The notes beneath the pieces are model-generated. The model was not told the DNA's origin and did no database searches. It worked only from the letters and a program-made list of their open reading frames with translations. A DNA stretch of 64,000 nt from an uncultured Coriobacteriaceae bacterium (GTDB lineage Bacteria > Actinomycetota > Coriobacteriia > Coriobacteriales > Atopobiaceae), in assembly GCA_902779675.1 (NCBI GenBank), contig CACZCK010000007.1, positions 1-64,000 of the forward strand, written 5' to 3'. Position 1 is the stretch's first letter. The number at the start of each line of letters is the position of its first letter. The position numbers and the translations under genes were made by a program. Below are positions 13,753-28,310 of the stretch, one piece after another.

Positions 13753-15234
13753 CTAGCGGTGGTAGTAGGTGCGCTTCTCGAACTTGGGCTCGCAGCACAC
13801 GTTGATGCCCAACTGGCGATAGATGCGCTCGTCGGTGGGCGAGATGATCACCGAGAAGTAGGCGTCGCAGCCCTTGAGCTTCTCTGCCGCATCGATAACG
13901 GAGGCGGCGAGCGGATTGGTAGCCGAGCTGATGGACAGGGCGATGAGCGTCTCGTCGGAGTGCAGGCGCGGGTTCTTGCTGTGCAGATGCGCGATCTTGA
14001 GCTTGCAGATCGGCTCGAGGGCGTCGTTGCTCACCACGTAGACGTCCTTGTCGACGCCGGCCACGCGTTTGAGGGCGTTGAGCAGCAGCGATGAGGCACA
14101 GCCTAGGATGGTGGACGTCTTGCCGGTGACCACGCTGCCATCGGGCAGAACCATGGCAGCGGCAGGCAGGCCCGTCTCCTCCTCCTTGGCAAGGGCGGCC
14201 GAGCGGGCCGGCGAGAAGTCCTCGTCGATGCCCACGTCCTTCATGAGCAGTCGGATGGTCTGCAGTTCCGCCTCGCCCACGCCGGTGCGCTCGAGGCGCT
14301 CGGCGGTGGTGAAGTAGCGGCGCACGATCTCGGCCTTGGCCGCGGTGCGGCAGGCCTCGTCGTCACTGATGCAGTTGCCCACCATGTTGACACCCATGTC
14401 GGTGGGCGATTGGTATGGACTCTCGCCTGCGATGCGCTCCATCATGCTCTTGAGCACCGGGAAGGTCTCGACGTCGCGGTTGTAGTTGACCGTGACCTTG
14501 TCGTAGGCCTCGAGGTGGAAGGGGTCGATGATGTTACGGTCGTCGAGGTCGGCCGTGGCGGCCTCGTAGGCCACGTTGACGGGGTGCTTGAGCGGCAGGT
14601 TCCACACGGGGAAGGTCTCGAACTTGGCATAGCCCGCCTGCACGCCCTGGCTGTACTCGTGATAGATCTGCGACAGGCATACGGCCAGCTTGCCCGAGCC
14701 GGGTCCCGGTGCCGTCACCACGACCAGGGGCTTGGAGGTCTTGGCAAACTGGTTCTTGCCAAAGCCCTCGTCGCTCACGATGAGGTCGACGTTGGTGGGG
14801 TAGCCGTCAATGGGGTAGTGGCGGTATACGGGAATGCCCAGCGCCTCGACGCGCGCCTGGTAGGCCTCCGCGTGGGGCTGCCCCGCCCAGCGGGTGATGA
14901 CGATGCCGCCGATGCCGATGCCCATGCCGCGGAAGATGTCGAGTAGGCGCAGGGCGTCCTCGGCATAGGGAATGCCCAGGTCGCTGCGGCGCTTGTCCTG
15001 CTCGATGTCGTTGGCGTTGAGTGCCACCAGCACCTCGGCATCCTTGGCGAGGCTGGAGAGCATACGCGCCTTGAGGTCGGGCTCGAAGCCGGGCAGCACG
15101 CGCGAAGCGTGGTAGTCGTCAAAGAGCTTGCCACCGAACTCGAGGTAGAGCTTGCCGCCAAACTGGTCGATGCGCTCGCGGATGCGCTTGGACTGCATCT
15201 CGATGTACTTGTCCTTGTCAAAGCCGGTCTGCAT
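13753..15234 (-). CDS. DUF1846 (UPF0371) family protein
   Basis: 493 residues, the usual length of the DUF1846 family, found across Firmicutes and Coriobacteriia. Conserved stretches include an N-terminal GFDKDKYIEMQSKRIRERI, VTAPGPGSGKLAVCLSQIYHEY (P-loop-like) and a C-terminal Rossmann-like region. Biochemical function is not established; a nucleotide- or thiol-related role has been proposed on structural grounds only. No signal or membrane segment. AAAGGAGTCA lies upstream of the start. Monocistronic. Confidence 0.92.
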   Translation of the reverse strand: MQTGFDKDKYIEMQSKRIRERIDQFGGKLYLEFGGKLFDDYHASRVLPGFEPDLKARMLSSLAKDAEVLVALNANDIEQDKRRSDLGIPYAEDALRLLDIFRGMGIGIGGIVITRWAGQPHAEAYQARVEALGIPVYRHYPIDGYPTNVDLIVSDEGFGKNQFAKTSKPLVVVTAPGPGSGKLAVCLSQIYHEYSQGVQAGYAKFETFPVWNLPLKHPVNVAYEAATADLDDRNIIDPFHLEAYDKVTVNYNRDVETFPVLKSMMERIAGESPYQSPTDMGVNMVGNCISDDEACRTAAKAEIVRRYFTTAERLERTGVGEAELQTIRLLMKDVGIDEDFSPARSAALAKEEETGLPAAAMVLPDGSVVTGKTSTILGCASSLLLNALKRVAGVDKDVYVVSNDALEPICKLKIAHLHSKNPRLHSDETLIALSISSATNPLAASVIDAAEKLKGCDAYFSVIISPTDERIYRQLGINVCCEPKFEKRTYYHR

Positions 15235-15501
15235 GCGCTGACTCCTTTGATGGGTTCCATAAGACGTGAACGCGCATCATTTTAGCAAGTGGCGCTGTGC
15301 CCTTGCCCAACTGGAAACGCCTCAGTAAGGCTTATGCACGAGGTGTGCACACGATGGAACGACATGCCAAGGTTGGCACGAGTTAGGCCTGTAAGCAGCG
15401 AGTAAGCTATCTTTGCCATACGTAGCGAGTTAGCATCGGTCAGCCGCCAGCGTTCGCTCTGCCCCGCCCACGCGCCACAAGCCATGGAAAGAGGACCTAG
15501 C

Positions 15502-16053
15502 GTGTCGTTTGTGTCGACCCTCAACGAGTACTGCACCTTACTCGCTTGCTCGAGTAAGGATCTCGCTGAGCGCAGCGGCATTTCACCGTCTACCCTCAGC
15601 AGATATCGGAGTGGACGACGCACGCCGTCCTACGATGGCGAAAGCGTGCGCAAGCTTGCCTCTGGCATCGTCTCCATCGCGCGCGAGCGCGGCATCGAGT
15701 CGATTGGTACCGAGGAGGAGGTCAAGGCAGACCTGCTCTCGGGGCTTAACCATAGCTCCACGGTCTTCTCGCACAGGCTCGATGCGCTCATGCGCACCCT
15801 TCAGATCTCCAACGTAGAGATGTCGCGTCAGGCGGCGGTCGATCCGTCGTACCTCTCGCGCATTCGCAACGGACGCCGGTCACCAGCAGACCCGCAGGGC
15901 CTGGCCCAGCGCTGTGCCGAGTACATCGTGAGCCACCGCGAGGACCGCGAGCTTCTGCGCGAGACGCTCGAGGTCATTGGCGGCGACGAACGCGGCGTGC
16001 GCAGTGCCTCGGAGCTTGAAGACCTCATTGCTCGGTGGCTGCTCGAGAAGTAG
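15502..16053 (+). CDS. Regulator with two Cro/C1-type helix-turn-helix domains
   Basis: 183 residues from the GTG at 15502 (GAAAGAGGA 6 nt upstream; the ATG at 15484 has no ribosome site). The first HTH is KDLAERSGISPSTLSRYRSG (about residue 20-40). The second is EMSRQAAVDPSYLSRIRNGRR (about 105-125). The two halves are similar, suggesting an internal duplication. Targets are unknown. It is divergent from the DUF1846 gene and could regulate it. Confidence 0.8.
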   Translation: MSFVSTLNEYCTLLACSSKDLAERSGISPSTLSRYRSGRRTPSYDGESVRKLASGIVSIARERGIESIGTEEEVKADLLSGLNHSSTVFSHRLDALMRTLQISNVEMSRQAAVDPSYLSRIRNGRRSPADPQGLAQRCAEYIVSHREDRELLRETLEVIGGDERGVRSASELEDLIARWLLEK

Positions 16054-16095
16054 CGCTCCCATCGCAGGAGTCCACCCGACCGTCAAACGATAGCG

Positions 16096-16130
16096 ACGCG
16101 GGGCAGACGAGAGAGTCTGCCCCGCGTTTT
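16096..16130 (+). terminator. Intrinsic terminator
   Basis: Perfect 13-bp stem (16096-16108 with 16115-16127, loop GAGAGA) followed by TTTT, 42 nt after the HTH regulator. Confidence 0.9.
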
Positions 16131-16150
16131 CATGCCTGTGGAGAATCGTG

Positions 16151-17176
16151 CTAGTCGGTGCTGATGAGCTCCACAATGCGGTCGATGGCCCACTTGGCCT
16201 CGGGAATGGGCGAGAGTGGGTAGGTGTGGTTGAGGCCGCGGCCGATGTAGATCTCGGCGTGGACACCGGTGGCATTGACGCGGTCGTAGAACAGGCGGGC
16301 GTCGGGGTAGAGCAGCTCGCGCGTACCCACAAAGATGATGACGTTGCGCAGGTTGCGCACCTCGCCGTTGACGGGGCTCACGCGGTAGTCGTTGGGATCG
16401 AGGCTCTTTGCCCAGGTGAGTCCCAGCTTCTGTAGACCATGCAGACCCAGCAGGGGGTCGGAAGCCTCGTACGAGAGGATGTCGGGGTTGCGCAGCGTCA
16501 TGTCGACCCACGGGGAGATGAGGATGAGGCGAGCGGGCTGCTCGATGCCAAGTGTGGCAAGGTGCTCGGCGAAGCTCGCGGCGATGCCGCCGCCGCAGGA
16601 GTCACCCATGATGGTGACGCTGTTGGCTCCGTACTTCTCGATGGTGCGGCAGTAGATCTCCTGAATGAAGTCGAGCGCCTCGAGTGCGCCATGCATCGGC
16701 AGAAGCGGGTAAAGCGGGACGATGACCTCGGCACGCGTGCGCTGGGCGATGGTCTCGACGAACTTCCACTGCTCGGCCACAGGCTGGGTGATGAAGCACC
16801 CGCCATGGATGTAGATGATCGCACGGTCGTTGATGGGGCGGCGGTTGAGGTGGAACACCTGGTAGCCGTTGACCATCTCCTCGTTGACGGTCACGTCGAG
16901 GTCGACGCCCGAGGGGATGGTGTAGCGGCGGTCGTTGCGGTCGGCGCTCTCGAGGATGGTGTTGTCGAGCAAGACCATATCCTTGAGCAGCTTCTTGCTG
17001 CCACCGGTTGCGCGGATGTAGAGCTCATTGGCCGTGCTGAGGTTGGAGCGATGGAAGACGGCATGCGAAATCAGCGTGTATGCGGCGGCAAATGCAGCGG
17101 GAACCCCCGCTGCCGCGCCGAGGATCTTGACTGCCTTTGGTGCCTTGCGGAGAGCCGCGAGGGTCGTGAGTGCCAT
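16151..17176 (-). CDS. Alpha/beta hydrolase, HSL-type esterase
   Basis: 341 residues. The N-terminal hydrophobic segment (about 18-38) may anchor it to the membrane. The oxyanion motif is HGG (124-126). The nucleophile elbow is GDSCGG with S193. The acid is in TRELLYPD and the His in GLNHTYPL. These are the hallmarks of the hormone-sensitive-lipase/carboxylesterase family. Small acyl or acetyl esters are the likely substrates, possibly acetylated glycosides given the surroundings (inference). Confidence 0.88.
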   Translation of the reverse strand: MALTTLAALRKAPKAVKILGAAAGVPAAFAAAYTLISHAVFHRSNLSTANELYIRATGGSKKLLKDMVLLDNTILESADRNDRRYTIPSGVDLDVTVNEEMVNGYQVFHLNRRPINDRAIIYIHGGCFITQPVAEQWKFVETIAQRTRAEVIVPLYPLLPMHGALEALDFIQEIYCRTIEKYGANSVTIMGDSCGGGIAASFAEHLATLGIEQPARLILISPWVDMTLRNPDILSYEASDPLLGLHGLQKLGLTWAKSLDPNDYRVSPVNGEVRNLRNVIIFVGTRELLYPDARLFYDRVNATGVHAEIYIGRGLNHTYPLSPIPEAKWAIDRIVELISTD

Positions 17177-17622
17177 TGGTGCCTTCTCTCGTTACGCGAA
17201 CGTCCGAAACGGATTGGTTCCTAGCGTAGCAGGATGGATGGGCGTCGGGCGTCACGCTTCGATGGAAGAGTCGTGGACGTCCGCTTTGAACATTCTGCAT
17301 GAAATATATCTAATTGTGCATACAGTCATGAGAGTCACGCGCTTGGCGTATGCACGTACAGGTGGTCATGAGCAAGAATGATGCGAGAGTACCAAAGCGA
17401 CTTTGGCGATAACCTGCACAAATGCAAAGCTGCCTGTGCTTCGCTATGCAACGGCATGTACCTCTGTGATGTATATCAAAGCGTTCTAATCACGCGAATA
17501 CAGGAATAAAGGGGAAATTAAATACAGAAATATGCCAGTACGGGCACCTTCATGCTATGATGTGCCTTGTCCAATTGCCGCGTCGCAGCCGCGACGCGCT
17601 ACCAGCTTGCAAGGAGGCAGCA
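17177..17622. other. Divergent intergenic region
   Basis: A 445-nt region, more AT-rich than its neighbours, with no convincing ORF. CTATGAT near 17555-17561 is a possible -10 for the B3/B4 gene. No repeat or RNA fold was recognised. Confidence 0.4.
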
Positions 17623-18342
17623 ATGAAGTTCGTCTGCGAGGATTCTTTCTGGGAGATCTTCCCCGAGGCGTCTATCGGCGTCGTGGTGGCTGATGGCATT
17701 CTGCCCACCGACCAGGTGAGCGACGAGAACGCCGCCAAGGCCGCCAAGCTGCTCGACCGGGCCAACGTGCTCGCCCAGAAGTGGGTTCCCAACACCACCA
17801 TCTCCAAGAACGAGGTGCCCGCCGTCTGGCGCGAGGCCTACCGCAAGTTCAAGACCAAGAAGGGCGTGCGCAGCTCGGTCGAGAACCTGCTCAAGCGCGT
17901 GCTCAAGGACAACCCCGTGGGTCACATCAACCCGTCCGTCGACATCTCCAACGCCATCTCGCTCAAGTACGCCATTCCCATGGGCGCCGAGAACGTGGAT
18001 GCCTTCGAGGGCACCTTCCGTCTCAAGGTCACCGAGGGCGGCGACTATTTCCTGCCCATCGGTGCTGATGAGAACGACCCGACGCTCGAGGGCGAGCTCT
18101 GCTATGTGGACGACGCCGGCGCCGTGTGCCGCTGCTGGAACTGGCGTGACGGCCAGCGTACCGAGGTGACCGACGAGACGCCGCACTGCGTCTTCATCAT
18201 GGAGAACATCCAGCCCGAGCGTCTTGGCGATTTGCAGGAGGCCGTCGACGAGCTGGCTGGCCAGCTCGAGGAGATCTTGGGTGCGACCGTCACCCACAAG
18301 GAGGTTCTGACGCGCGAGCATCCCGAGATGGAGCTCTGCTAG
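17623..18342 (+). CDS. B3/B4 tRNA-binding-domain protein
   Basis: 239 residues forming a single B3/B4 domain, the fold that performs editing in phenylalanyl-tRNA synthetase beta. Free-standing versions are thought to bind or edit aminoacyl-tRNA, but substrates are not well established. Family-typical segments are IPMGAENVDAFEG and the CYVDDAGAVCRCWNWRDGQRT stretch. The start follows AAGGAGGCAGCA. Monocistronic, ended by the 17-bp hairpin at 18371. Confidence 0.85.
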   Translation: MKFVCEDSFWEIFPEASIGVVVADGILPTDQVSDENAAKAAKLLDRANVLAQKWVPNTTISKNEVPAVWREAYRKFKTKKGVRSSVENLLKRVLKDNPVGHINPSVDISNAISLKYAIPMGAENVDAFEGTFRLKVTEGGDYFLPIGADENDPTLEGELCYVDDAGAVCRCWNWRDGQRTEVTDETPHCVFIMENIQPERLGDLQEAVDELAGQLEEILGATVTHKEVLTREHPEMELC

Positions 18343-18370
18343 CGACACCTCATCTGACATTTGACCTGCC

Positions 18371-18411
18371 AAGGCGCCTCGACCGTAGCTTTACGGTCGA
18401 GGCGCCTTTGC
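18371..18411 (+). terminator. Intrinsic terminator
   Basis: Perfect 17-bp stem (18371-18387 with 18392-18408), tetraloop GCTT, then TTTG. Confidence 0.85.
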
Positions 18412-18506
18412 GCTGGCGCACCAAGCGATGGCATGGGTACGCTAAAGTGGTGTGGTCGTGCCGGATACTGCGTTTACGCATGCGAATATAGCGGGAGCTG
18501 GCTGCC

Positions 18507-21500
18507 ATGGAACAGAACCAAGACGGGCTTCGGATGGTCGGGCGCTACGCGCTTATCGAGCAGATCGGTAGCGGTGGCTTTGGTGAGACGTGGCGCGCAT
18601 ACGACGAGATACTCGATACCGACGTTGCCATCAAGGCGTTCCAGTATCCCGATGTCACCGATCACGATCGCTATCTGCGGGAGGCCCGGTCGATGGCGCG
18701 CCTCTCCGGCGTGGAGGGCATCGCTCACGTGCGGGACCTTGTTGAGGAGGACGAGCGCCTCTACTTGGTCATGGACTACGTCGAGGGCGAGGACCTCTCG
18801 CAGCTGCTCGCGCGGGAGGGACGTCTCTCCCTAGGCCAGACGCTCGGCATCCTGCAGCCGGTCTCCCTGGCGCTCGAGGCGATGCATGGTCGTGGGGTCG
18901 TGCATCGCGACGTGAGCCCCGACAACATTCGCGTGACGCCTGAGGGTCGAGGCACACTCCTCGACTTTGGCTCGGTGCTCAGCGCCAGCCATGTGGGGCA
19001 CACCATGACGGTCAAGCCGGGCTATGCGCCTCCTGAGCAGTATGGCGAGGCGTCTTCGCAGGGTCCATGGACCGACGTGTACGCACTGGCAGCTTGTGCG
19101 TACCAGTGCCTGAGCGGCATGCCGCCCGCCGATAGCCTGCAGCGCATCTTCCACGACGAGCTCAAGCGTCCCTCGGAGCTTGGCGTCGCGATTTCGCCAG
19201 CAGTTGAGGATGCGCTGATGGCGGGCCTCGTGTTGGATGGCCGCACCCGCACGCAGACCGTGCGAGAGCTCATGGAAGGGCTGTCTGGTGTGGCGCCCGT
19301 TGTGGCGCAGTCACAAGAACCCCAGGCACCTGCGACGGTCATTCAGCAGAGTGAGAGCGGCACGGCTGCGTCCGAATCCCCTCAGCATGGAGCCGGTGCC
19401 GTGGCGTCAGGCAGTGTCTCTCGCAAGGGGAATCCGACAGAGGTGGCGACGCCCGCCGTCAAGGAGGTGCGGGCCGGGGGCAGCAGTTCCGTCGCAACGG
19501 CGCAGGCCGCCAGTGTGAAGAGCGCCGGCGAGCAGGGTCGTCCGGCCGAGGGACATAGTCTCGCAAGGTCGCTGCCCAAGTTCCAGCCAAAGAAGCTGGC
19601 CGTGCTGCTGGGAGCAGTGGTTGCCGTCGTGGCGGCCGTCATTCTGGGTGCCGTGCTGTTTGGCAGGGTCGGCAGCACCGATTCGCCCGCAAGCGAGTCA
19701 ATCAGCCAGCAGACGGTCAGTCCAGAGACGGCAAGCAGACTTGCCAATGACCCGGAGAAGAAGTCCGTGACCTTCACGCGCTGTGTGGTGCCCGACGAGG
19801 CGCTCGAGATACTGGCGACTTCGGAGACCATCGAGAGCATCACCCTGAACGCGTGCACCGGGTTCAGCTCCCTCGAAGTGCTGGATGGCATGAGCGGTTT
19901 GGTGAGCCTGAACCTCTCGACCATGGAGGACGTCGATCTCGATGCCCTTTTCCCAAAGACGATGCACACGCTTCAGCTGCTGCGTCTGCAGACGATGTCC
20001 ATCGAAGGAGGCGCCAGCGCACTCAGGCGCTTCCCGGCGTTGACGACGCTGGTGTTGTCGCCTGTTGAGGGCATCGATGACATCGACTTCCTCGAATCCC
20101 TGCCCAAGCTCGAGCAGCTCGACCTGTCGGGGATCGATCTCTCTGGAAGCAAGGTGGACCAGCTGTCTGCCTTGGACAAGCTTGAGGTGGCGAGGGTCAA
20201 CCTCTGCAACATCGACACGCTCGCGTGGACCCAATCGTGTCCGGAGCTCACCACACTGGAGGCCCAGGGCAACCAGATCTCCAATGTCGAAGCGTTGGCG
20301 GGACACGAGAGACTCAGGACGCTCTGGCTCTCTGGCAACCAGATCGACAGTCTGGGGCCACTGGCGGAGTGCCCCGAGCTTTCCGACGTGCTGTTGGCCC
20401 AAAACCAGGTGCGCTGGGTTGACGGCCTTGCGGGTCACAGCAAGCTCTGGCGTCTGTCCCTTGCGGACAACGAGCTGGTTGACGCCAGCGGTCTCGATGG
20501 CCTGACGGCGCTCGTGCAACTGTCGCTGGAGAACAACCAACTGACAAACATCGACTCGATCGCCGACAGCACCGAGCTCAAGCGTCTTGACGTCTCCGGC
20601 AACAATCTGGATGAGATAGACGTGTGCGAGCGGTTCATCGGGCTAGAGCAGCTCGACGCCTCGCACAACTCCCTGACCGACGTCTCGAGACTTGCCAGTT
20701 GCTCGCAACTCAAGCTTCTGTTCCTGCAGGACAACGAGATTGACAGCATTGCGGCGCTCGGCAATGACTTCCTCGACCTCGAGACGCTCAACATCGCCTA
20801 CAACAAGGTGGACTCGCTCGAGCCTCTGGCCGGCTGCTCCAAGCTCAGGTACCTGGTCGCAAGCAACAACACCATCACCTCGCTGGACGGTCTGCAGGAC
20901 AAGCCAAAGCTCGACACGCTGCTTGCCGACCACAACCAGATTGCGAGCATCGAGGCACTCGCCAGCTCTACGGGAGTCCTGCAGAACGTCGACCTCGGTC
21001 ATAACAACGTGAGCAGCATCACCGCGCTTTCGGGGATGCTCTCGCAGGATACCTACGGGGTCTATGCGTCGCTTCTGCTCGACCACAACCAGATACGCTC
21101 GCTCGACGGCCTACCAGTAGGTGGGGGCTATTACGGCCTCGCGTTGCACGGCAACCCCATCAGTGACTTCTCGAGGCTGTCGTCAGCCGAGACCAAATGG
21201 AACGTGCTCTACCTGCCCTATGCGCAAGGTGCGAGCTACAGCTCCCTGGGTGAGCTGCCGCTGATTGGCTCGACGCGCTTCGTGGGAGTGCCCTACGATC
21301 AGCAGAACAAGGTGCTGCGCGAGCTGGGCATAGCCGAGAGCGATCGCTTCTCCGCGAGGCCCAAGTTCATAGACGAGCAGACCGCCGAGGACGAGATGGA
21401 GAGCTTCCGCCAGCAGCTACAGGGCAGGGTGAGCGGTATGCCAGGGGAGCAGGGCACGCAGAATGCCGATGGCGAGGACGTATCCGATGATGATGCCTAA
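18507..21500 (+). CDS. Membrane Ser/Thr protein kinase with leucine-rich-repeat ectodomain
   Basis: 997 residues. The kinase domain is residues 12-260: glycine loop GSGGFGETW (21-29), K43 (VAIKAF), HRDVSPDN with D135 and N140, DFG 153-155 and YAPPEQY. A low-complexity Ser/Ala/Glu linker (265-360) leads to one membrane helix (about 362-388). The C-terminal half (about 415-930) is a run of roughly 22-residue internalin-type leucine-rich repeats (L..L..N.I..I). The protein would thus have an inside kinase and an outside ligand-binding surface. PASTA domains, usual in such kinases, are absent. The next two genes encode an FHA-ABC ATPase and permease. Confidence 0.93.
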   Translation: MEQNQDGLRMVGRYALIEQIGSGGFGETWRAYDEILDTDVAIKAFQYPDVTDHDRYLREARSMARLSGVEGIAHVRDLVEEDERLYLVMDYVEGEDLSQLLAREGRLSLGQTLGILQPVSLALEAMHGRGVVHRDVSPDNIRVTPEGRGTLLDFGSVLSASHVGHTMTVKPGYAPPEQYGEASSQGPWTDVYALAACAYQCLSGMPPADSLQRIFHDELKRPSELGVAISPAVEDALMAGLVLDGRTRTQTVRELMEGLSGVAPVVAQSQEPQAPATVIQQSESGTAASESPQHGAGAVASGSVSRKGNPTEVATPAVKEVRAGGSSSVATAQAASVKSAGEQGRPAEGHSLARSLPKFQPKKLAVLLGAVVAVVAAVILGAVLFGRVGSTDSPASESISQQTVSPETASRLANDPEKKSVTFTRCVVPDEALEILATSETIESITLNACTGFSSLEVLDGMSGLVSLNLSTMEDVDLDALFPKTMHTLQLLRLQTMSIEGGASALRRFPALTTLVLSPVEGIDDIDFLESLPKLEQLDLSGIDLSGSKVDQLSALDKLEVARVNLCNIDTLAWTQSCPELTTLEAQGNQISNVEALAGHERLRTLWLSGNQIDSLGPLAECPELSDVLLAQNQVRWVDGLAGHSKLWRLSLADNELVDASGLDGLTALVQLSLENNQLTNIDSIADSTELKRLDVSGNNLDEIDVCERFIGLEQLDASHNSLTDVSRLASCSQLKLLFLQDNEIDSIAALGNDFLDLETLNIAYNKVDSLEPLAGCSKLRYLVASNNTITSLDGLQDKPKLDTLLADHNQIASIEALASSTGVLQNVDLGHNNVSSITALSGMLSQDTYGVYASLLLDHNQIRSLDGLPVGGGYYGLALHGNPISDFSRLSSAETKWNVLYLPYAQGASYSSLGELPLIGSTRFVGVPYDQQNKVLRELGIAESDRFSARPKFIDEQTAEDEMESFRQQLQGRVSGMPGEQGTQNADGEDVSDDDA

Positions 21501-21530
21501 CGACCGTCTCGCAGGTTTGGGGAGTCTACG

Positions 21531-22850
21531 ATGACAAGCGATGCTGGACAGGGAAGGGCGACCACGTTGCGCCCTGACGGCGTCTGCGGAGAGCCGTTGC
21601 TCGTGGGTTTCACATCGGCGGGTCACGTGCGTGATTGGCCACTCGCAGGGACGATGAGCCTGGGGCGCCTGGGGTCAGGCGCAGACATCGAAGTGCCGTC
21701 GGGAGTCGTTTCCTCTCGCCACGGTGAAGTCAGCCTGGTGCAGGGCAGGGTGTTCTACCGTGATCTGGGGAGCACCAACGGCACCTGGCTCGATGGCTGT
21801 CGCGTCGAGGATACGGTCGAGCTGCGCGAGGGCAGCGTGCTGGCTTTTGCGCCTCAGAACGCCCCCGAGAGTCCCGCGTTCTTTGTGGCGCTCGCGTCCT
21901 CTGCAGGCAAGGAGACCGATGGGGTGGGGGAGACTGCTGCGCAGGCCGAACGCGAGCGGCAAGACGGGCCGACTCCCGCCTTCGCAGAAGAATCCTCGCG
22001 CGAGGCACCTGAGGTCGTTTTGGGAATGGATGCCCTCAAGGGCTCGCTGGTCATCGATATCGAGGAGAAGAGCGTCTGGTCGCATCATACGAAGAAGGCC
22101 ATCCTGCGCGACGTGCACCTGAGCGTCGATCCTGGCGAGATGGTGCTCATCCTGGGAGGCTCAGGCGCGGGCAAGTCGACCTTCATCAACGCGGTGATGG
22201 GCAACAGCAAGGCGGACGGGCGCATCATGCTGGGCGATACCGACATCTATGCCGAGTATGAACGCATCAAGTACGAGATTGGCTACGTGCCGCAGCAGGA
22301 CCTGTTGCGTGGCAACGATACGGTGCGCGACACGCTCTTTGCCGCGGCGCAGCTTCGCATGCCCAAGGGCACATCGCATGCGGAGTGCCTGGCGCGAGCC
22401 GTCTGGGCTGGGGAGCTGCTTGGCCTCAAGCGCGAGGGGGACACGCTGGTCGGACGTCTCTCTGGCGGTCAGCGAAAGCGCCTCTCGATTGCCGTGGAGC
22501 TGGTGAGCGATCCGGCGCTGTTCTTCCTTGACGAGCCCGACTCGGGTCTCGATGGCGTCATGGCCCGCGCACTGATGGAGAATCTGCGCTCCATTGCCGA
22601 CATGGGCAAGATGGTGCTGGTTATTACCCATGGGCCAGACCGGGCAGCGGACCTGTTCTCCAAGGTCGTCGTGCTGGCCAAGGTGGAGCGTGACGGGGCA
22701 GGCCACATGGTGTTCTGTGGTTCGGTGGCCAACGCGCTGGAGTTCTTTGACACCGACTCGCTCGAGGGCGTGGTGCGGCGCATCAATCGCGAGGACGAGG
22801 GCGGCGATGGCTTGGCCGACCGCTACCTCGAGAAGTGGGAGGCGAGGTAG
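21531..22850 (+). CDS. FHA domain-ABC ATPase
   Basis: 439 residues. An N-terminal forkhead-associated domain (about 35-115) has SLGR, SSRHGEV and STNGTWLDG, which bind phosphothreonine. A Glu-rich linker is followed by an ABCG-like ATPase (about 170-439) with GGSGAGKST, LSGGQRKRLS and FFLDEPDSGLD. The gene lies 30 nt after the kinase gene and 2 nt before the permease gene. It resembles Rv1747 of Mycobacterium tuberculosis, an FHA-ABC transporter phosphorylated by a kinase (established knowledge), but with the permease on a separate chain. Phospho-control of transport is the natural inference. Confidence 0.92.
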   Translation: MTSDAGQGRATTLRPDGVCGEPLLVGFTSAGHVRDWPLAGTMSLGRLGSGADIEVPSGVVSSRHGEVSLVQGRVFYRDLGSTNGTWLDGCRVEDTVELREGSVLAFAPQNAPESPAFFVALASSAGKETDGVGETAAQAERERQDGPTPAFAEESSREAPEVVLGMDALKGSLVIDIEEKSVWSHHTKKAILRDVHLSVDPGEMVLILGGSGAGKSTFINAVMGNSKADGRIMLGDTDIYAEYERIKYEIGYVPQQDLLRGNDTVRDTLFAAAQLRMPKGTSHAECLARAVWAGELLGLKREGDTLVGRLSGGQRKRLSIAVELVSDPALFFLDEPDSGLDGVMARALMENLRSIADMGKMVLVITHGPDRAADLFSKVVVLAKVERDGAGHMVFCGSVANALEFFDTDSLEGVVRRINREDEGGDGLADRYLEKWEAR

Positions 22851-22852
22851 CC

Positions 22853-23665
22853 ATGGAGCAGCAGGCGGGACCGTTGCGTCAGACTCGGGTGTGCCTGGAG
22901 CGTTGTCTGCGCGCCTTTGTCAACGACCGTGGGTGGAAGACCTTCCTCTCGGTGGCGCTCATCACCGTGCTCATTGGCATGGTGATGGGCAAGGATACCT
23001 TCGAGGGCTACGCGGCCACGAGGAACGGAGCGTTTGCGTTGGTCTGCGCCTGCATCTGGATTGGCATCTTCAACTCGATCCGTACCATCTGCCGCGAGCG
23101 CGACATCATTCGGCGGGAGCATCGCACGGGGCTCAACCTGTGGTCGTACATGGCGGCGCACCTGATCTACGAGGCGCTGCTGAGTGCGGCGGAGGCCGTG
23201 GTGGTCGTGCTCATCGTGCGCATCATGTGCTACGACCACTTTGTGACGCGTGGCGTGCTGCTGCCGCCCACGCTGGAGATGGGTGTGACCTTCTTCCTTA
23301 TCATCTTCTCGGCAGATGCGTTGGGCTTGCTCATCTCGTCGATTGTGCGGTCCGAGAACACGGCCATGACGGTGATGCCTTTCGCGCTCATCGTGCAGCT
23401 CGTCATGTCGGGCACCATCTTTGAGCTCTCCGGCCTTCCCGACGCCATCTCGAACTTGACCATCAGCCGCTGGGGGCTCGATGCCATCTGCGCGACCGCG
23501 CATGTCAACGAGATGCTCGAGGTGGGCATGGGCTACGTGGAAGCCTTGCCCGAACAGGCGGCAAGTGCAAGCAACCTGCTTGCCCTCTGGGGTCTGCTGG
23601 CATTCTTTGCGCTGGCCTACGGTGTGTTGGCGGCAGCATTGCTCCATCTGGTTGACCGGGGATAG
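22853..23665 (+). CDS. ABC-2 type permease
   Basis: 270 residues with about six membrane helices (near 33-50, 60-80, 105-130, 145-175, 180-200 and 240-262). The arrangement is that of ABC-2/ABCG permeases. A cytoplasmic RTICRERDIIRREHRTGLN stretch resembles the coupling helix before the second transmembrane segment. The ATG at 22853 follows GAGGTAGCC, nearly overlapping the FHA-ABC stop. It probably pairs with that ATPase as an exporter. The cargo is unknown. Confidence 0.88.
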   Translation: MEQQAGPLRQTRVCLERCLRAFVNDRGWKTFLSVALITVLIGMVMGKDTFEGYAATRNGAFALVCACIWIGIFNSIRTICRERDIIRREHRTGLNLWSYMAAHLIYEALLSAAEAVVVVLIVRIMCYDHFVTRGVLLPPTLEMGVTFFLIIFSADALGLLISSIVRSENTAMTVMPFALIVQLVMSGTIFELSGLPDAISNLTISRWGLDAICATAHVNEMLEVGMGYVEALPEQAASASNLLALWGLLAFFALAYGVLAAALLHLVDRG

Positions 23666-23836
23666 CTTCGGCCCCGCCTCCGGTCTTTTGCACGGATCTC
23701 GTCATGGCGATGCCTGTCTCTTTCGTGTTCACCGAGCGTACCAGCGCCTATGCCGACGGCCAAGGCACGGGTCGAATGGTTGTTTCACAATTGAACTGTC
23801 TTTAGTACGCGCGGACGCTCGAGGAGAGGGGTATCC

Positions 23837-25801
23837 ATGTACGAGAAGCTGTTCGAACCCGTCACGATCAACAAGATGGTGGTTCCCAACCGTCTGGTCT
23901 TTGAGCCGATGGGCAACTACTATGCCGAGCTCAACGGCGATGCGAGCCAGCGTGACTGCGACTTCTACGCCGCGCGTGGTGCCGGCGGCTGCGGTCTGGT
24001 AATCACCGAGATCTGCTCGGTCAACCGTACGACCGCCCGTGGCGACGCCCGCAACCTGGTCATCGACAACGACGAGGCCATTCCGAGCTTCCGTCGCATG
24101 GCCGAGGCCGTGCACGCGACCGGTGCCAAGTTTGCGGTCGAGATCTATCATCCGGGCTGCCAGGGCGTCCCGCCGCTGTGCGTCGACGGCATTACCGTAA
24201 GTCCGTCCGGCCAGCCCTCCAAGCTCACCAACGCGCCTACCCGTGCGCTCGAGCACGATGAGGTCCTCCAGACGATCGACGACTTCATCCAGGCGGGCAT
24301 CCGCGTGTGGAAGTCGGGCGCCGACGCCGTCGAGCTGCACTGCGCGCATGGCTACCTGCTCTGTCAGTTCCTGAGCCCCTACACCAACCATCGCGACGAC
24401 GAGTTTGGTGGCAGCCTCGAGAACCGTGCCGAGATCGTGCGGCGCATCATCGAGGGAGTCCGTCAGGGCACCAGTCCCGACTTCCCCATCATCGTGCGCC
24501 TGACCGCCGACGAGTACCTGCGCTGCATCGGCATCGATGACGGCATCACGCTCGACATGGCCGTGGAGTACTGCAAGCTCTTCGAGCAGTGGGGTGCCGA
24601 TGCCATCGACGTCAGTGCGGGCAACTATGAGACCATGAACTGGGCCTGGGAGCCTGTGGGCTTCGACGAGGGCTGGAAGTCCGTCAACGGCAAGACCATC
24701 GCTGCCGCGGTCGACATTCCCGTTATCGCGTGCTCGGTGGTGCGTCATCCCGAGACGGCCATGGACCTCGTGGATAACGGCGTGGCCATGGTGGGCTCTG
24801 CGCGCCAGTTCTTTGCCGATCCCGACTGGGGCAACAAGGTGCGTGAGGGCGCAAGCAAGCTCATCCGTCCGTGCATCAGCTGCATGCGCTGCATCGAGAG
24901 CTTGATGGCTGCGCACGAGGACCCGTTCAGCCCCATGGTGTGCTCCGTCAACCCCGAGGCTGGCCGCGAGTGCGATCTTGCGCCGCTGGCCAAGGACGGC
25001 GACGGTCGTAAGGTCGTGGTGGTGGGCTCCGGTCCCGCCGGCCTCGAGGCCGCCCGCGTGCTGGGCATCCGCGGCTTCGACGTGGTGGTGCTGGAGAAGG
25101 CCGATGAGGTCGGTGGCCAGCTGGTCTTTGCCGCCAAGCCGCCCAAAAAGTGGCGCCTCGACTGGCTCATCCGCTACTACGAGGCTGCGCTGGCAGATCT
25201 GCCGGTTCAGATCCGCTGCGGCGTGGAGGCCACGGCCGACGTCATCAAGGCCGAGGACCCGGTGGCCGTGATCTGGGCGGCGGGCTCGCAGCCGGTGAAG
25301 CCTGGCAGCATCCCCGGGCTCGACAGCGAGCTGGTGCTCACCCCGCCCGAGGCCATCATGGCCAACCCGCCGCTCACGGGCGAGAAGGTCGTGGTCGTGG
25401 GCTCCGGTATGACGGGCATCGAGGTCGCCGAGATGCTCTCGTCCGAGCAGGAGTGCCACGTGGACCTCTACGAGATGGTGGACCAGATTGGCCCGGGCAT
25501 CTTCTTCCAGAACATGATCGACATCATGGGTCGCCTTGGCCAGACCGATACCACGCTCAACCCTGGGCACAAGCTCCTCAAGGTAGAGGGCAATGTGGCC
25601 ACCTTCGAGAAGGCAGACGGCGAGCAGGTCGAGGCGGAGTTTGACCATCTGGTGCTCTCGCTGGGCATGAGGCCCATGGCAGCGCCGGAGTGGGCCGCCG
25701 AGCTAGGCGTTCCAGTCATCGTGGCGGGCGACTCCGAGAAGGTCGGTCGCATCCAGGAGGCCGTGACCGGCGGCTACGACGCGGCGCGCTCCATCGGGTA
25801 A
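23837..25801 (+). CDS. Old-yellow-enzyme/FAD/Fe-S oxidoreductase (2-enoate or dienoyl-CoA reductase family)
   Basis: 654 residues. An FMN TIM barrel spans 1-340 (HCAHGYLLCQFLSPYTN.. and R..DEFGGS). A 4Fe-4S motif follows (CISCMRCIES with a Cys about 12 residues further). The C-terminus has FAD and NAD(P)H Rossmann domains (VVVVGSGPAGLEAARV and VVVVGSGMTGIEVAEM). This is the layout of 2,4-dienoyl-CoA reductase, enoate reductase and BaiCD-type steroid reductases. It reduces activated C=C bonds in the cytoplasm. The substrate cannot be told. The start follows GAGGAGAGGGG. Confidence 0.9.
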   Translation: MYEKLFEPVTINKMVVPNRLVFEPMGNYYAELNGDASQRDCDFYAARGAGGCGLVITEICSVNRTTARGDARNLVIDNDEAIPSFRRMAEAVHATGAKFAVEIYHPGCQGVPPLCVDGITVSPSGQPSKLTNAPTRALEHDEVLQTIDDFIQAGIRVWKSGADAVELHCAHGYLLCQFLSPYTNHRDDEFGGSLENRAEIVRRIIEGVRQGTSPDFPIIVRLTADEYLRCIGIDDGITLDMAVEYCKLFEQWGADAIDVSAGNYETMNWAWEPVGFDEGWKSVNGKTIAAAVDIPVIACSVVRHPETAMDLVDNGVAMVGSARQFFADPDWGNKVREGASKLIRPCISCMRCIESLMAAHEDPFSPMVCSVNPEAGRECDLAPLAKDGDGRKVVVVGSGPAGLEAARVLGIRGFDVVVLEKADEVGGQLVFAAKPPKKWRLDWLIRYYEAALADLPVQIRCGVEATADVIKAEDPVAVIWAAGSQPVKPGSIPGLDSELVLTPPEAIMANPPLTGEKVVVVGSGMTGIEVAEMLSSEQECHVDLYEMVDQIGPGIFFQNMIDIMGRLGQTDTTLNPGHKLLKVEGNVATFEKADGEQVEAEFDHLVLSLGMRPMAAPEWAAELGVPVIVAGDSEKVGRIQEAVTGGYDAARSIG

Positions 25802-25880
25802 TCAAGTAGACTGAGACGGTACGAGTCTTGGGTGGCGCTCTCGCACGCGGGGGCGCCGCCTCATGCGGAGAGGGAGTCCC

Positions 25881-26498
25881 ATGAAGGTCCTGATGATCAA
25901 TGGCAGCCCCAAGGTCAGGGGCAACACGGCTCGCGCGCTCGACGAGATGCGCACGGTCTTCGAGGCCGAGGGCGTCGAGGTCGAGTGCGTGCAGGTGGGC
26001 AACCAGGCGGTGCGCGGCTGTGTGGCCTGCAACGGCTGCGCCAAGAAGGGCGCCTGCGTCTTCGACGACGTGGTCAACGAGCTTGCTCCCAAGTTTGAGG
26101 CGGCCGACGGCCTAGTGGTGGGGTCGCCCGTTTACTATGGCTCCGCTAACGCGACGCTCGTCGCGGTTCTCGACCGCCTGTTCTACTCCATGCAGTTCGA
26201 CGCCACCATGAAGGTCGGTGCCGCCGTGGCGGTGGCGCGCCGCGGGGGCCTGACGGCTACCTTCGACGAGCTCAACAAGTACTTCACCATCAGCGGCATG
26301 CCTGTGGCTTCTGGCCAGTATTGGAACGGCGTGCATGGCCGCCTGCCCGGCGAGGCGGAGCAGGACGGCGAGGGCCTGCAGCAGATGCGCACCCTCGCGC
26401 GCAACATGACCTTCCTGATGCGCTCGATCGAGCTGGGCCGCGAGAAGTACGGCCTGCCCGAGCGCGAGGAGGGCATCTGGACGCACTTCATGCGATAA
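25881..26498 (+). CDS. NAD(P)H-dependent FMN reductase, flavodoxin-like
   Basis: 205 residues. MKVLMINGSPKVRGNTARAL is the phosphate-binding loop for FMN, CVACNGCAKKGAC is a Cys-rich motif common in iron-sulfur flavoproteins and related reductases, and VGSPVYYGSAN completes the FMN site. It lies 79 nt after the OYE-type enzyme and could act with it. The start follows GGAGAGGGAG. Confidence 0.88.
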   Translation: MKVLMINGSPKVRGNTARALDEMRTVFEAEGVEVECVQVGNQAVRGCVACNGCAKKGACVFDDVVNELAPKFEAADGLVVGSPVYYGSANATLVAVLDRLFYSMQFDATMKVGAAVAVARRGGLTATFDELNKYFTISGMPVASGQYWNGVHGRLPGEAEQDGEGLQQMRTLARNMTFLMRSIELGREKYGLPEREEGIWTHFMR

Positions 26499-26538
26499 GA
26501 AAGGGTCCGAGGCGATCCCTGATCAGATAGGAGAGGCT

Positions 26539-26760
26539 ATGCTCGTTCCCTTCTCGTATACGCGCTATGCCAACTCCAGGCTCGCCACCTGCGTGAGCTT
26601 CTTTGGCGGTTTGATGATTGCTGGCGGCCTGGCTACCGCCGTCTTGACGCTCGTGGAAGGCGAAATGGAGGGAATCGCTGCTGGTGCGGTAATTGCCCTT
26701 GTAGGGTTTGGTCTCAACAAGCTGACAGAGTCCATCGCAAACAAGAAGAACAGGGCCTGA
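26539..26760 (+). CDS. Small two-helix membrane protein
   Basis: 73 residues with two hydrophobic segments (about 16-40 and 45-62) and a basic end (NKKNRA). Preceded by AGGAGAG. Family unknown. It follows the FMN reductase by 40 nt and is ended by a strong terminator. Confidence 0.65.
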   Translation: MLVPFSYTRYANSRLATCVSFFGGLMIAGGLATAVLTLVEGEMEGIAAGAVIALVGFGLNKLTESIANKKNRA

Positions 26761-26783
26761 CCATCATACCTGCGCACAAAAGA

Positions 26784-26821
26784 GGGTCACTCCTTTCTGC
26801 TTCAGCAGAATGGAGTGACCC
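26784..26821. terminator. Long hairpin between convergent genes
   Basis: GGGTCACTCC-x-TTCTGC pairs with GCAGAA-x-GGAGTGACCC (26784-26800 with 26805-26821) around a TTCA loop. It separates the small membrane protein gene from trpB2. Confidence 0.8.
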
Positions 26822-26841
26822 CTATTTGTATGCTCGGCTTC

Positions 26842-28251
26842 TTACAATGCGAGGCCGCCCTCGGCCTGGATGCCCGGCACGGCGGGTATGGTGGCAAAGC
26901 CCAGCTCCAGCTCCTCGTCGGTTGGCTCGTGGTCGACCATGGTGCCGCTGTTGAAGGCCTCGTATGCGGTCAGGTCAAAGTAGCCGGTGCCCGTCAGGCC
27001 AAACAGGATGACCTTCTCCTCGCCGGTCTCCTTGCACCTGAGGGCCTCGTCGATGGCCACGCGGATGGCGTGCGCGCTCTCGGGCGCAGGCAGGATGGTC
27101 TCCAGCTTGGCAAACTGCTCGGCGGCGGCAAAGACGTCGGTCTGTGCCACGGACACGGCGTCCAGGAAGCCATCGTGCTTGAGCTGGCTGATGATGGGGC
27201 TCATGCCGTGGTAGCGCAGACCGCCGGCGTGGTCGGGGCTGGGGATGAAGCCGTTGCCCAGCGTGTACATCTTGACGAGCGGGCAGGTCTGGCCGGTGTC
27301 GGCGAAGTCGTAGGCAAAGCGGCCGCGCGTGAGGCTGGGGCAGCTCTTGGGCTCCACGGCGATGAAGCGCGTGTTGGGCCGCTTGCCCGTGAGCTTGTCG
27401 CGCATGAACGGGGCGATGAGGCCACCCAGATTGGAGCCGCCACCTGCACAGCCGATCACGACGTCGGGGTACTCGCCGAGCTCCTCGAGTGCGGCGTAGC
27501 TCTCCAGACCAATGATGGACTGGTGCAGCAGCACCTGGTTGAGCACCGAGCCCAGCTGGTAGCGGCCGCGGTTCTCGGGCACATGCAGCGCGCGCTCCAC
27601 GGCCTCGCTGATGGCGGTGCCCAGCGAGCCGGAGCGGTTGGCCTCGTCGGCATACATCTTGCGGCCGATCTCGGTCTCCTGGCTGGGGGAGGCGGTCACC
27701 TGCGCGCCGAAGGTCTCCATGACGCTGCGGCGGAAGGGCTTCTGCTCGTAGCTGGCACGCACCATAAAGACGTCGCAGTCCAGGCCAAAGCGTGCGGCGG
27801 CCTCGCTGAGGGCGGTGCCCCACTGGCCGGCGCCCGTCTCGGTGGTGATGGTGGAGAGGCCCTGCTCATGGGCGTAGTAGGCCTGTGCCAGGGCGGAGTT
27901 GAGCTTGTGCGAGCCGGAGGTGTTATTGCCCTCGAACTTGTAGTAGATCTTGGCGGGCGTGCCCAGGGCCTGCTCCAAGCTGTAGGCGCGGCAGAGCGGG
28001 CTCGGGCGGTAGATCTTGTACATCTCGCGGATGCCCTCGGGGATGTCGACGTAGGCCGTGTCGTCGTCGAGCTCCTGGCGCACCAGCTCGTCGGCAAAGA
28101 CGGGGGCGACGTGCTCGAACTGTGCCACCACGCCGTTGGGCAGGCGCATGGGCTCGGGCTTGTTGGGCATGTCGGCGCGCAGGTTGTAGTACTGGGTGGG
28201 GATCTGGTCCTCGGACAGGTAGATGCGGTACGGGTCCTTCTTGGCAGCCAT
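26842..28251 (-). CDS. TrpB-like PLP enzyme (TrpB2), tryptophan synthase beta
   Basis: 469 residues, longer than classical TrpB, with the TrpB2-type N-terminal extension. The PLP lysine is K116 in NNTSGSHKLNSA. CAGGGSNLGG binds the cofactor phosphate. It makes Trp from indole and serine, or salvages indole. No trpA or other trp genes are adjacent, and TrpB2 is often a stand-alone indole-salvage enzyme (family knowledge). The start at 28251 follows AAGGAGGCC. A tRNA-Trp T-box precedes it, so it is induced by Trp starvation. Confidence 0.93.
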   Translation of the reverse strand: MAAKKDPYRIYLSEDQIPTQYYNLRADMPNKPEPMRLPNGVVAQFEHVAPVFADELVRQELDDDTAYVDIPEGIREMYKIYRPSPLCRAYSLEQALGTPAKIYYKFEGNNTSGSHKLNSALAQAYYAHEQGLSTITTETGAGQWGTALSEAAARFGLDCDVFMVRASYEQKPFRRSVMETFGAQVTASPSQETEIGRKMYADEANRSGSLGTAISEAVERALHVPENRGRYQLGSVLNQVLLHQSIIGLESYAALEELGEYPDVVIGCAGGGSNLGGLIAPFMRDKLTGKRPNTRFIAVEPKSCPSLTRGRFAYDFADTGQTCPLVKMYTLGNGFIPSPDHAGGLRYHGMSPIISQLKHDGFLDAVSVAQTDVFAAAEQFAKLETILPAPESAHAIRVAIDEALRCKETGEEKVILFGLTGTGYFDLTAYEAFNSGTMVDHEPTDEELELGFATIPAVPGIQAEGGLAL

Positions 28252-28310
28252 CGTGGCCTCCTTCCTGCGCCGGTTGGCGCGCTGAGGACGGCCGGCCATC
28301 TCTGGCTAAC

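What the first reader, a model, noticed from the sequence alone, without database searches (positions are those of the whole stretch)
18507..23665. LRR receptor kinase with FHA-ABC ATPase and permease: a phospho-gated transporter
One operon joins an inside Ser/Thr kinase, a single membrane helix and an internalin-like LRR ectodomain with an ATPase bearing a phosphothreonine-binding FHA domain and a matching ABC-2 permease. The design implies that an extracellular ligand or peptidoglycan signal alters kinase activity, and FHA binding then switches transport. The FHA-ABC part recalls Rv1747/PknF in mycobacteria, but an LRR sensor in place of PASTA is unusual. The cargo is unknown.
Basis: partly seen in the sequence, partly recalled or inferred. 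Interest (0 to 1): 0.72.

Follow-up and report, generated by a model that had tools for sequence, protein, structure and literature searches.

The report
Receptor-kinase cassette gating an exporter
Three side-by-side bacterial genes encode a membrane kinase with a predicted outside sensor arm, a transport motor with a domain that reads phosphate marks, and the matching pore, so an outside signal would likely switch export of a still unknown cargo.

Summary
The three genes are real: kinase-TM-LRR (18507-21500), FHA-ABC ATPase (21531-22850), ABC-2 permease (likely 22853-23665). Catalytic and phosphothreonine-pocket residues are kept. The set behaves as a unit: in 140 family genomes the LRR kinase and this FHA-ABC occur in the same 9, adjacent in 8 (contig ends part them in one). 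Of 23 LRR-kinase loci in named genomes, out to Clostridia, 14 carry the triad, 1 is cut, 8 lack it. Relatives can add a PP2C gene, mostly have two FHA domains, and swap ectodomains (LRR, PASTA, SH3). The window's single FHA is likely a secondary loss. New here: a threonine ahead of FHA1 is kept in 64 of 71 non-redundant relatives, never serine there; in two it sits in TEVFRAD, in register with the GarA/OdhI phospho-switch TSVFRAD. The window keeps only a weak version (RATTLRPD). In its genus the triad comes and goes at one neighbourhood, and its LRR is 44-47% identical between genomes whose flanking genes are mostly 90-94% identical. Best reading: a phospho-gated ABCG-type exporter, like Rv1747/PknF but with a variable LRR sensor. 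Ligand, cargo, phosphorylation and direction of the switch are untested.

The parts
18371..18409 (+). 17-bp hairpin, likely terminator of the upstream B3/4 gene, marking the start of a separate transcription unit
   Evidence: read; fold of 18360-18416 -39 kcal/mol, z -7; not listed by the pattern scan
18507..21500 (+). Transmembrane Ser/Thr kinase with LRR ectodomain: kinase 8-260, disordered linker 263-364, TM 362-384, LRR about 396-930
19002..19004 (+). Thr166 of the kinase activation loop (HTMTVKPGY)
   Evidence: Thr in 30 of 30 rows of A2; but Thr in 10 and Ser in 11 of 21 locus kinases
19689..21296 (+). predicted extracellular LRR solenoid (residues about 395-930)
   Evidence: best folds Roco LRR and internalin A
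21531..22850 (+). FHA-ABC ATPase: disordered tail 1-18, FHA 22-123, linker 126-166, ABCG-type NBD
21561..21566 (+). Thr11-Thr12 of the FHA-ABC tail (RATTLRPD), candidate phospho-acceptor
   Evidence: aligned Thr column T in 64 of 71 representatives
21666..21779 (+). phosphothreonine pocket residues of the FHA: Arg46, Ser61, His64, Asn83
   Evidence: R46, S61, H64 invariant and N83 at least 90% in A1, 38 rows; letters checked
22853..23665 (+). ABC-2 (ABCG-type) permease, 270 aa from ATG 22853
   Evidence: ABC2_membrane 78.5 bits, cut-off 26.9

Best explanation
Three adjacent genes encode a membrane Ser/Thr kinase with a predicted outside LRR domain, an ABC ATPase with an FHA domain and an ABC-2 permease, and the kinase likely switches this exporter by phosphorylating it. 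Shown from sequence: the gene set, the intact kinase, FHA and ATPase motifs, its gain and loss as a unit, and a conserved threonine in the disordered tail before FHA1. Inferred: the LRR binds an outside ligand; this changes kinase activity; the kinase, perhaps docked to the FHA by its own phosphothreonines, phosphorylates the tail threonine; the phosphothreonine then docks on an FHA domain in the same or the partner subunit, as in GarA/OdhI, and thereby opens or assembles the NBD dimer of an ABCG-type exporter; a PP2C enzyme resets it. In the window, where the second FHA is gone and the threonine motif is weak, the switch would have to run through the one FHA. Cargo: most likely an amphipathic envelope or small hydrophobic molecule, judged from the ABCG class only.
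For: Co-occurrence: LRR kinase (at least 268 bits) and FHA-ABC (at least 328 bits) in the same 9 of 140 family genomes, the other 131 with neither at that level; next to each other in 8 of 9, the ninth split by contig ends. 14 of 23 LRR-kinase loci among 78 from named genomes carry kinase, FHA-ABC and permease in this order. PP2C gene directly upstream of the kinase in 5 of those 14 (L015, L033, L043, L044, L048). FHA pocket R46, S61, H64 invariant, N83 at least 90% in 38 rows. Kinase K43, E59, HRD, N140, D153, G155 invariant in 30 rows. Tail Thr: 64 of 71 representatives, the most conserved of the scored columns upstream of the FHA1 GR; no Ser in that column; T.[VILMR][FYWL] in 43 of 71 tails against a shuffle mean of 4.5 (max 14 of 1000), the Ser version in 1. 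TEVFRAD in L019 and P0175 against SDEVTVETTSVFRADFL of GarA (PMC8546545, passages). The 9 FHA-ABCs whose kinase has Ser in the activation loop all keep the tail Thr. Tail is disordered in the model.
Against: No phosphorylation, binding or transport data. The window's tail has no aromatic at +3 (RATTLRPDG). In its single-FHA sister clade the Thr is shifted, lost or Ser (P0126-P0130, P0132), and the aligned Thr is kept in 2 of 5 single-FHA against 58 of 62 two-FHA representatives (Fisher 0.007; related sequences, small n), so the Thr may serve FHA2, which the window lacks. 8 of 23 LRR-kinase loci have no FHA-ABC. Motif patterns were chosen after seeing the sequences. The FHA may instead bind the kinase activation loop or another protein. 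No PP2C gene was found next to the triad in the window; the genome has 3 elsewhere.
Confidence: 0.55

Rival explanations
1. The FHA is only a docking site: it binds the phosphorylated activation loop or linker of the kinase, holding kinase and transporter in one complex, and the regulatory phosphorylation falls on the ATPase linker, the permease or other proteins.
For: Thr166 in the activation loop is Thr in 30 of 30 rows; FHA-dependent recruitment by PknG phosphothreonines is described for GarA/OdhI (PMC8546545, passages); Rv1747 is a PknF substrate and both its FHA domains are needed for the interaction (PMC3908365, passages). Fits the window's weak tail motif.
Against: In 11 of 21 locus kinases the loop residue is Ser, which FHA domains do not favour (recalled), yet the tail Thr persists in all 9 of those with an FHA-ABC.
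Confidence: 0.25
2. The LRR kinase is a general envelope sensor with many targets, and the transporter is only one client that shares its operon.
For: 8 of 23 LRR-kinase loci stand without FHA-ABC, for example Blautia parvula L013, where a small FHA protein follows. The own genome has 8 kinase and 9 FHA matches.
Against: Within the family the two never part (9 of 9), and they enter and leave the genus neighbourhood together.
Confidence: 0.12
3. The variable ectodomain is a target or recogniser in conflicts between strains or with phages, and the exporter gives self-protection or releases a toxic product.
For: LRR 44-47% identical while the flanking genes are mostly 90-94%; patchy presence; two insertion points near the same genes.
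Against: No toxin, immunity or biosynthesis gene was seen as a constant neighbour in the triad loci listed; annotation there was by similarity to the three queries and by eye only.
Confidence: 0.08

Closest known systems
Rv1747/PknF of Mycobacterium tuberculosis
   Same: Operon of a Ser/Thr kinase and an FHA-bearing ABCG-like exporter; Rv1747 FHA1 is the best bacterial solved match of the window FHA (6cah, E 8e-4). Kinase-dependent regulation is shown there (PMC3908365, passages).
   Different: Rv1747 has two FHA domains and NBD plus membrane domain in one chain; the window has one FHA and a separate permease gene, and its kinase carries an LRR ectodomain. Rv1747's phosphothreonines lie in the linker between the FHA domains (recalled; Spivey 2011 is not held), not in a tail before FHA1.
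GarA/OdhI FHA phospho-switch
   Same: Short disordered tail with a kinase-targeted Thr ahead of an FHA domain; relatives share T-x-V-F-R-A-D in register.
   Different: GarA/OdhI are free-standing inhibitors of metabolic enzymes; here the FHA is fused to an ABC ATPase, mostly as a pair, and the window motif is only RATTLRPD.
PASTA kinases (PknB, Stk1, PrkC)
   Same: Hanks-type kinase, disordered juxtamembrane, one TM helix, outside sensor.
   Different: No PASTA domain; 159.7 bits against the 450 cut-off of NF033483.
Class 1 internalins
   Same: 22-residue LRR repeats, InlA among the best sequence and fold matches.
   Different: Anchored by the kinase's own TM helix, no internalin cut-off met (107.9 against 1600 bits for InlA).
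FHA-FHA-ABC-permease fusion of the same genome (G000 contig 26, locus L125)
   Same: Two FHA domains, ABC_tran and ABC2_membrane in one chain; also a tail Thr (GPQTILVQ).
   Different: Fused like Rv1747; no kinase match in the 14.3 kb held around it (tblastn).

Membership tests
Hanks-type Ser/Thr kinase | catalytic Lys, Glu, HRD, DFG | tested here: met
   K43, E59, H133-R134-D135, N140, D153, G155 invariant in 30 rows; Pkinase 107 bits over cut-off
Functional FHA domain | GR, SxxH, NG phosphothreonine pocket | tested here: met
   R46, S61, H64 invariant, N83 at least 90% in 38 rows; binding itself not tested
Active ABC ATPase | Walker A, Q-loop, signature, Walker B, D-loop, H-switch | tested here: met
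   GGSGAGKST 209, YVPQQD 252, LSGGQ 310, LFFLDEP 330, SGLD 338, VITHG 364
Rv1747-type FHA-ABC exporter | two FHA domains before the NBD | tested here: not met
   one FHA in the window; two in L119, L121, L044 and L014, L017, L019, L029, L038, L064; one also in L011 and P0126
Rv1747-type FHA-ABC exporter | NBD and membrane domain in one chain | tested here: not met
   separate ORFs in the window
Rv1747-type FHA-ABC exporter | linked Ser/Thr kinase gene | tested here: met
   30-base gap; same 9 of 140 genomes
Rv1747-type FHA-ABC exporter | phosphorylation by the linked kinase | not testable with these tools
   needs protein
GarA/OdhI-like tail switch | conserved tail Thr ahead of the FHA | tested here: inconclusive
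   met in the family (64 of 71); window has RATTLRPD without an aromatic at +3; single-FHA sisters have lost or shifted it
GarA/OdhI-like tail switch | phosphothreonine binds its own FHA | not testable with these tools
   needs protein; the tail is disordered in the unphosphorylated model
PASTA kinase | PASTA repeats outside | tested here: not met
   no PASTA match; NF033483 159.7 bits, cut-off 450
Class 1 internalin | curated model cut-off | tested here: not met
   InlA 107.9 of 1600, InlH 102.1 of 1050 bits
ABCG-type exporter | ABC2_membrane permease and ABCG-like NBD | tested here: met
   ABC2_membrane 78.5 bits; ABCG25, ABCG16, ABCG5 lead the fold search of the ATPase; export itself not tested

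The most novel reading that the evidence does not exclude
Gut Coriobacteriia and Clostridia carry a family of receptor-kinase-gated exporters built from exchangeable parts: an outside sensor (LRR, PASTA, SH3 and others) on a Ser/Thr kinase, an ABC ATPase whose tail threonine is phosphorylated and captured by its own FHA domains in a GarA-like switch, a permease and often a PP2C eraser. The LRR sensor diversifies so fast that strains with near-identical surroundings listen to different ligands.
Probability: 0.33. Interest if true: 0.78.

Novelty: new variant of a known kind. Interest (0 to 1): 0.58.

Why it matters
How a bacterial Ser/Thr kinase controls an FHA-bearing ABC exporter has been studied mainly in Rv1747/PknF, in a dangerous germ and with an unsettled cargo. 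This family offers non-pathogenic gut relatives, kinase, phosphatase, motor and pore in one operon, and one named threonine and one named pocket to mutate. If the tail switch is right, a known metabolic FHA switch (GarA/OdhI) has also been built into membrane transporters. The fast-changing LRR makes outside ligand recognition by bacterial receptor kinases directly testable.

Tried and rejected
Internalin or surface adhesin: rejected, because the LRR chain is a kinase with one TM helix and no internalin cut-off is met. PASTA kinase: rejected. Part of a larger operon with the B3/4 gene upstream: unlikely, hairpin in between, and the order of triad and neighbours differs between genomes. FMN oxidoreductase and flavodoxin-like genes downstream as cargo makers: unlikely, they sit at the same neighbourhood in genomes without the triad. 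Recent foreign origin by base composition: weak only, third-position GC 0.79-0.84 in the triad against 0.76-0.92 in its neighbours. Known RNA element in 15000-27000: none reached Rfam gathering scores. A look for the tail motif in solved structures with a 27-residue query found nothing useful. A plasmid search with the kinase found partial matches only, none covering 80%. My first count of LRR-kinase loci (21) was recounted over all 78 loci and is 23. Papers: searches listed no paper on an LRR kinase linked to an FHA-ABC transporter; abstracts and passages only were seen, none read whole, and subscription journals are mostly not held. A Pseudomonas aeruginosa kinase with LRR is mentioned in PMC1262709 (passages).
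Full report
Observation. The three genes exist as described. The kinase-LRR has a kinase domain, a disordered, poorly conserved linker (mean majority-residue share 0.19 against 0.66 for the kinase), one TM helix and a long LRR solenoid. The closest folds are the Roco LRR, internalin A, and for the kinase PknA, PknB and Stk1. The FHA-ABC has a disordered 18-residue tail, an FHA, a disordered linker and an ABCG-like NBD. The permease is ABC2_membrane. Spacing is 30 and 2 bases; a strong hairpin separates the set from the gene upstream.

A unit. I searched 140 genomes of the window's family with each protein. FHA-ABC relatives over 300 bits are in 9 genomes (the next best matches are at 164 bits or less), and LRR-kinase relatives over 250 bits are in 9 (next best 150 bits or less); they are the same 9: G000, G062, G064, G069, G070, G074, G132, G135, G137 (per genome only the first 12 and 5 candidates were scored). 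Kinase and FHA-ABC adjoin in 8; in G070 each lies at a contig end. In a sample of 396 genomes of the class, 7 have the kinase, all in this family. The records are Coriobacteriaceae and Atopobiaceae MAGs, Blautia, Lachnospiraceae, Ruminococcus and other Clostridia, mostly from gut or rumen by their titles.

Parts that vary. In 5 of the 14 triads a PP2C gene ends 3 bases or so before the kinase. Four loci have the ABC with kinases that lack an LRR match: L029 (PP2C, FHA-FHA-ABC, permease, two kinases), L038 (permease, FHA-FHA-ABC, kinase with SH3_3), L080 (PASTA kinase, another gene, a two-FHA gene, an NBD gene, permease, PP2C cut by the contig end) and L053 (F5/8-C kinase, with an FHA-ABC-permease fusion about 5 kb on and WXG100-like small genes upstream, the last by eye). 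The ectodomain thus looks exchangeable on a constant kinase-transporter core.

FHA number. By Pfam, 9 of 9 tested two-FHA candidates (L014, L017, L019, L029, L038, L044, L064, L119, L121) show two FHA stretches, and the window, L011 and P0126 show one. By the distance from the first FHA to Walker A, 5 of 67 representatives are single. The window's state is therefore probably a loss, shared with its sister clade (P0126 to P0130, P0132).

The tail threonine. From 120 FHA-ABC homologues (best 120 of 7790 listed) and 23 locus proteins I removed 4 fragments, clustered the 139 left at 80% (74 representatives) and removed 3 that begin at or inside FHA1. In the 71 left, one tail column is Thr in 64; other letters are A, M, E, I and a gap, never S. 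It is the most conserved column upstream of the FHA1 GR motif among those with at least 35 letters (0.91; the next are Leu 0.83 and Gly 0.82, in the FHA fold itself). Thr followed by x, [VILMR], [FYWL] occurs in 43 of 71 tails against 4.5 in within-tail shuffles (maximum 14 of 1000); the same with Ser in 1. The patterns were chosen after looking, and the sequences are related, so these figures are descriptive. In L019 and P0175 the motif reads TEVFRAD; the GarA peptide used with PknG is SDEVTVETTSVFRADFL (PMC8546545, passages), with the second Thr in the same register. Structure 2kfu, named Rv1827 pThr 22, is in the listing, and the title of Nott 2009, seen in reference lists, calls it an intramolecular switch. 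That FHA domains prefer phosphothreonine over phosphoserine is recalled.

Against it in the window. The window reads RATTLRPDG, with no aromatic at +3. In its sister clade the site is RVRATR, RVRAAC, MHASR or CERAR, one of them with Ser. Single-FHA representatives have the aligned Thr in 2 of 5, two-FHA ones in 58 of 62 (Fisher 0.007). So the tail Thr may be read by FHA2 in the family, and the window may be in transition to another ligand, for example the kinase activation loop. There Thr166 is Thr in 30 of 30 rows of a hand-picked alignment (30 of 120 homologues plus window) but Thr in 10 and Ser in 11 of 21 locus kinases; the 9 of those 11 that have an FHA-ABC all keep the tail Thr, while L011 has the loop Thr and no tail Thr. 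The tail Thr is therefore the better conserved candidate ligand of the two.

A variable cassette. In the genus (18 genomes) the neighbourhood HTH, hydrolase, B3/4, oxidoreductase, flavodoxin-like, TrpB-like is recognisable. The triad lies upstream of the oxidoreductase in G000 and G137 and between the flavodoxin-like and TrpB-like genes in G132 and G135. It is absent there in G133, G130, G127, G123 and the short G139 contig, and the kinase is found nowhere in those genomes at E 1e-30 (G139 and G123 are only 73 and 83% complete). Identity to the window in G137, G132 and G135: oxidoreductase 91-94%, TrpB-like 91-93%, B3/4 90-94% (two genomes), flavodoxin-like 90-91% (two genomes), but hydrolase 76-77% and HTH 80% (one genome); kinase domain 57-62%, LRR 44-47%, FHA 55-58%, NBD 75-80%, permease 76-78%. 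Fast divergence or exchange of alleles would both explain this; selection was not tested.

Mechanism and confidence. I commit to phospho-gating of an ABCG-type exporter by the linked receptor kinase (0.55). The tail-Thr-to-FHA step is the most specific proposal. Cargo and ligand are open. Rv1747 loss is tied to cell-envelope changes and lower PIM levels (PMC3908365, PMC5549992, passages), and phosphorylated Rv1747 FHA-linker forms condensates reversed by PstP (PMC9312465, passages), which would be an alternative way for phosphate to cluster transporters.

Literature. Eight searches listed nothing on an LRR kinase linked to an FHA-ABC transporter or on a tail phosphosite in such transporters; only listings, abstracts and passages were seen, in an open-licence library.

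Noticed in passing
window 17557-28299 and loci L165-L174: The triad's neighbourhood is a presence/absence site in the genus, with two different insertion points for the same module.
   Followed up: partly
G000 contig 26, locus L125:5177-7885 (-): A second transporter in the same genome: FHA-FHA-ABC-permease fusion of about 900 aa, close to Rv1747 in architecture, with its own tail Thr; relatives L126 and L127 lack a kinase match too, and L126 has a PP2C gene beside it.
   Followed up: partly
L053:1164-16651: Kinase with F5/8-C ectodomain, PP2C-like and FHA genes and an FHA-ABC fusion near WXG100-like small genes, hinting at a link of this signalling set with type VII secretion; the WXG100 label is by eye.
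   Followed up: no
L013:7824-12160 (Blautia parvula): LRR kinase followed not by a transporter but by a small protein with a hydrophobic start and one FHA domain, then a PP2C-like gene (PP2C by eye).
   Followed up: no
L016, L067, L083: Tandem arrays of several kinases, some with LRR ectodomains, without FHA-ABC.
   Followed up: no
G000 contig 21, locus L128: Kinase, FHA, FHA, PP2C and another kinase clustered near a gene read by eye as a cell-wall polymerase, like the usual actinobacterial division cluster.
   Followed up: no
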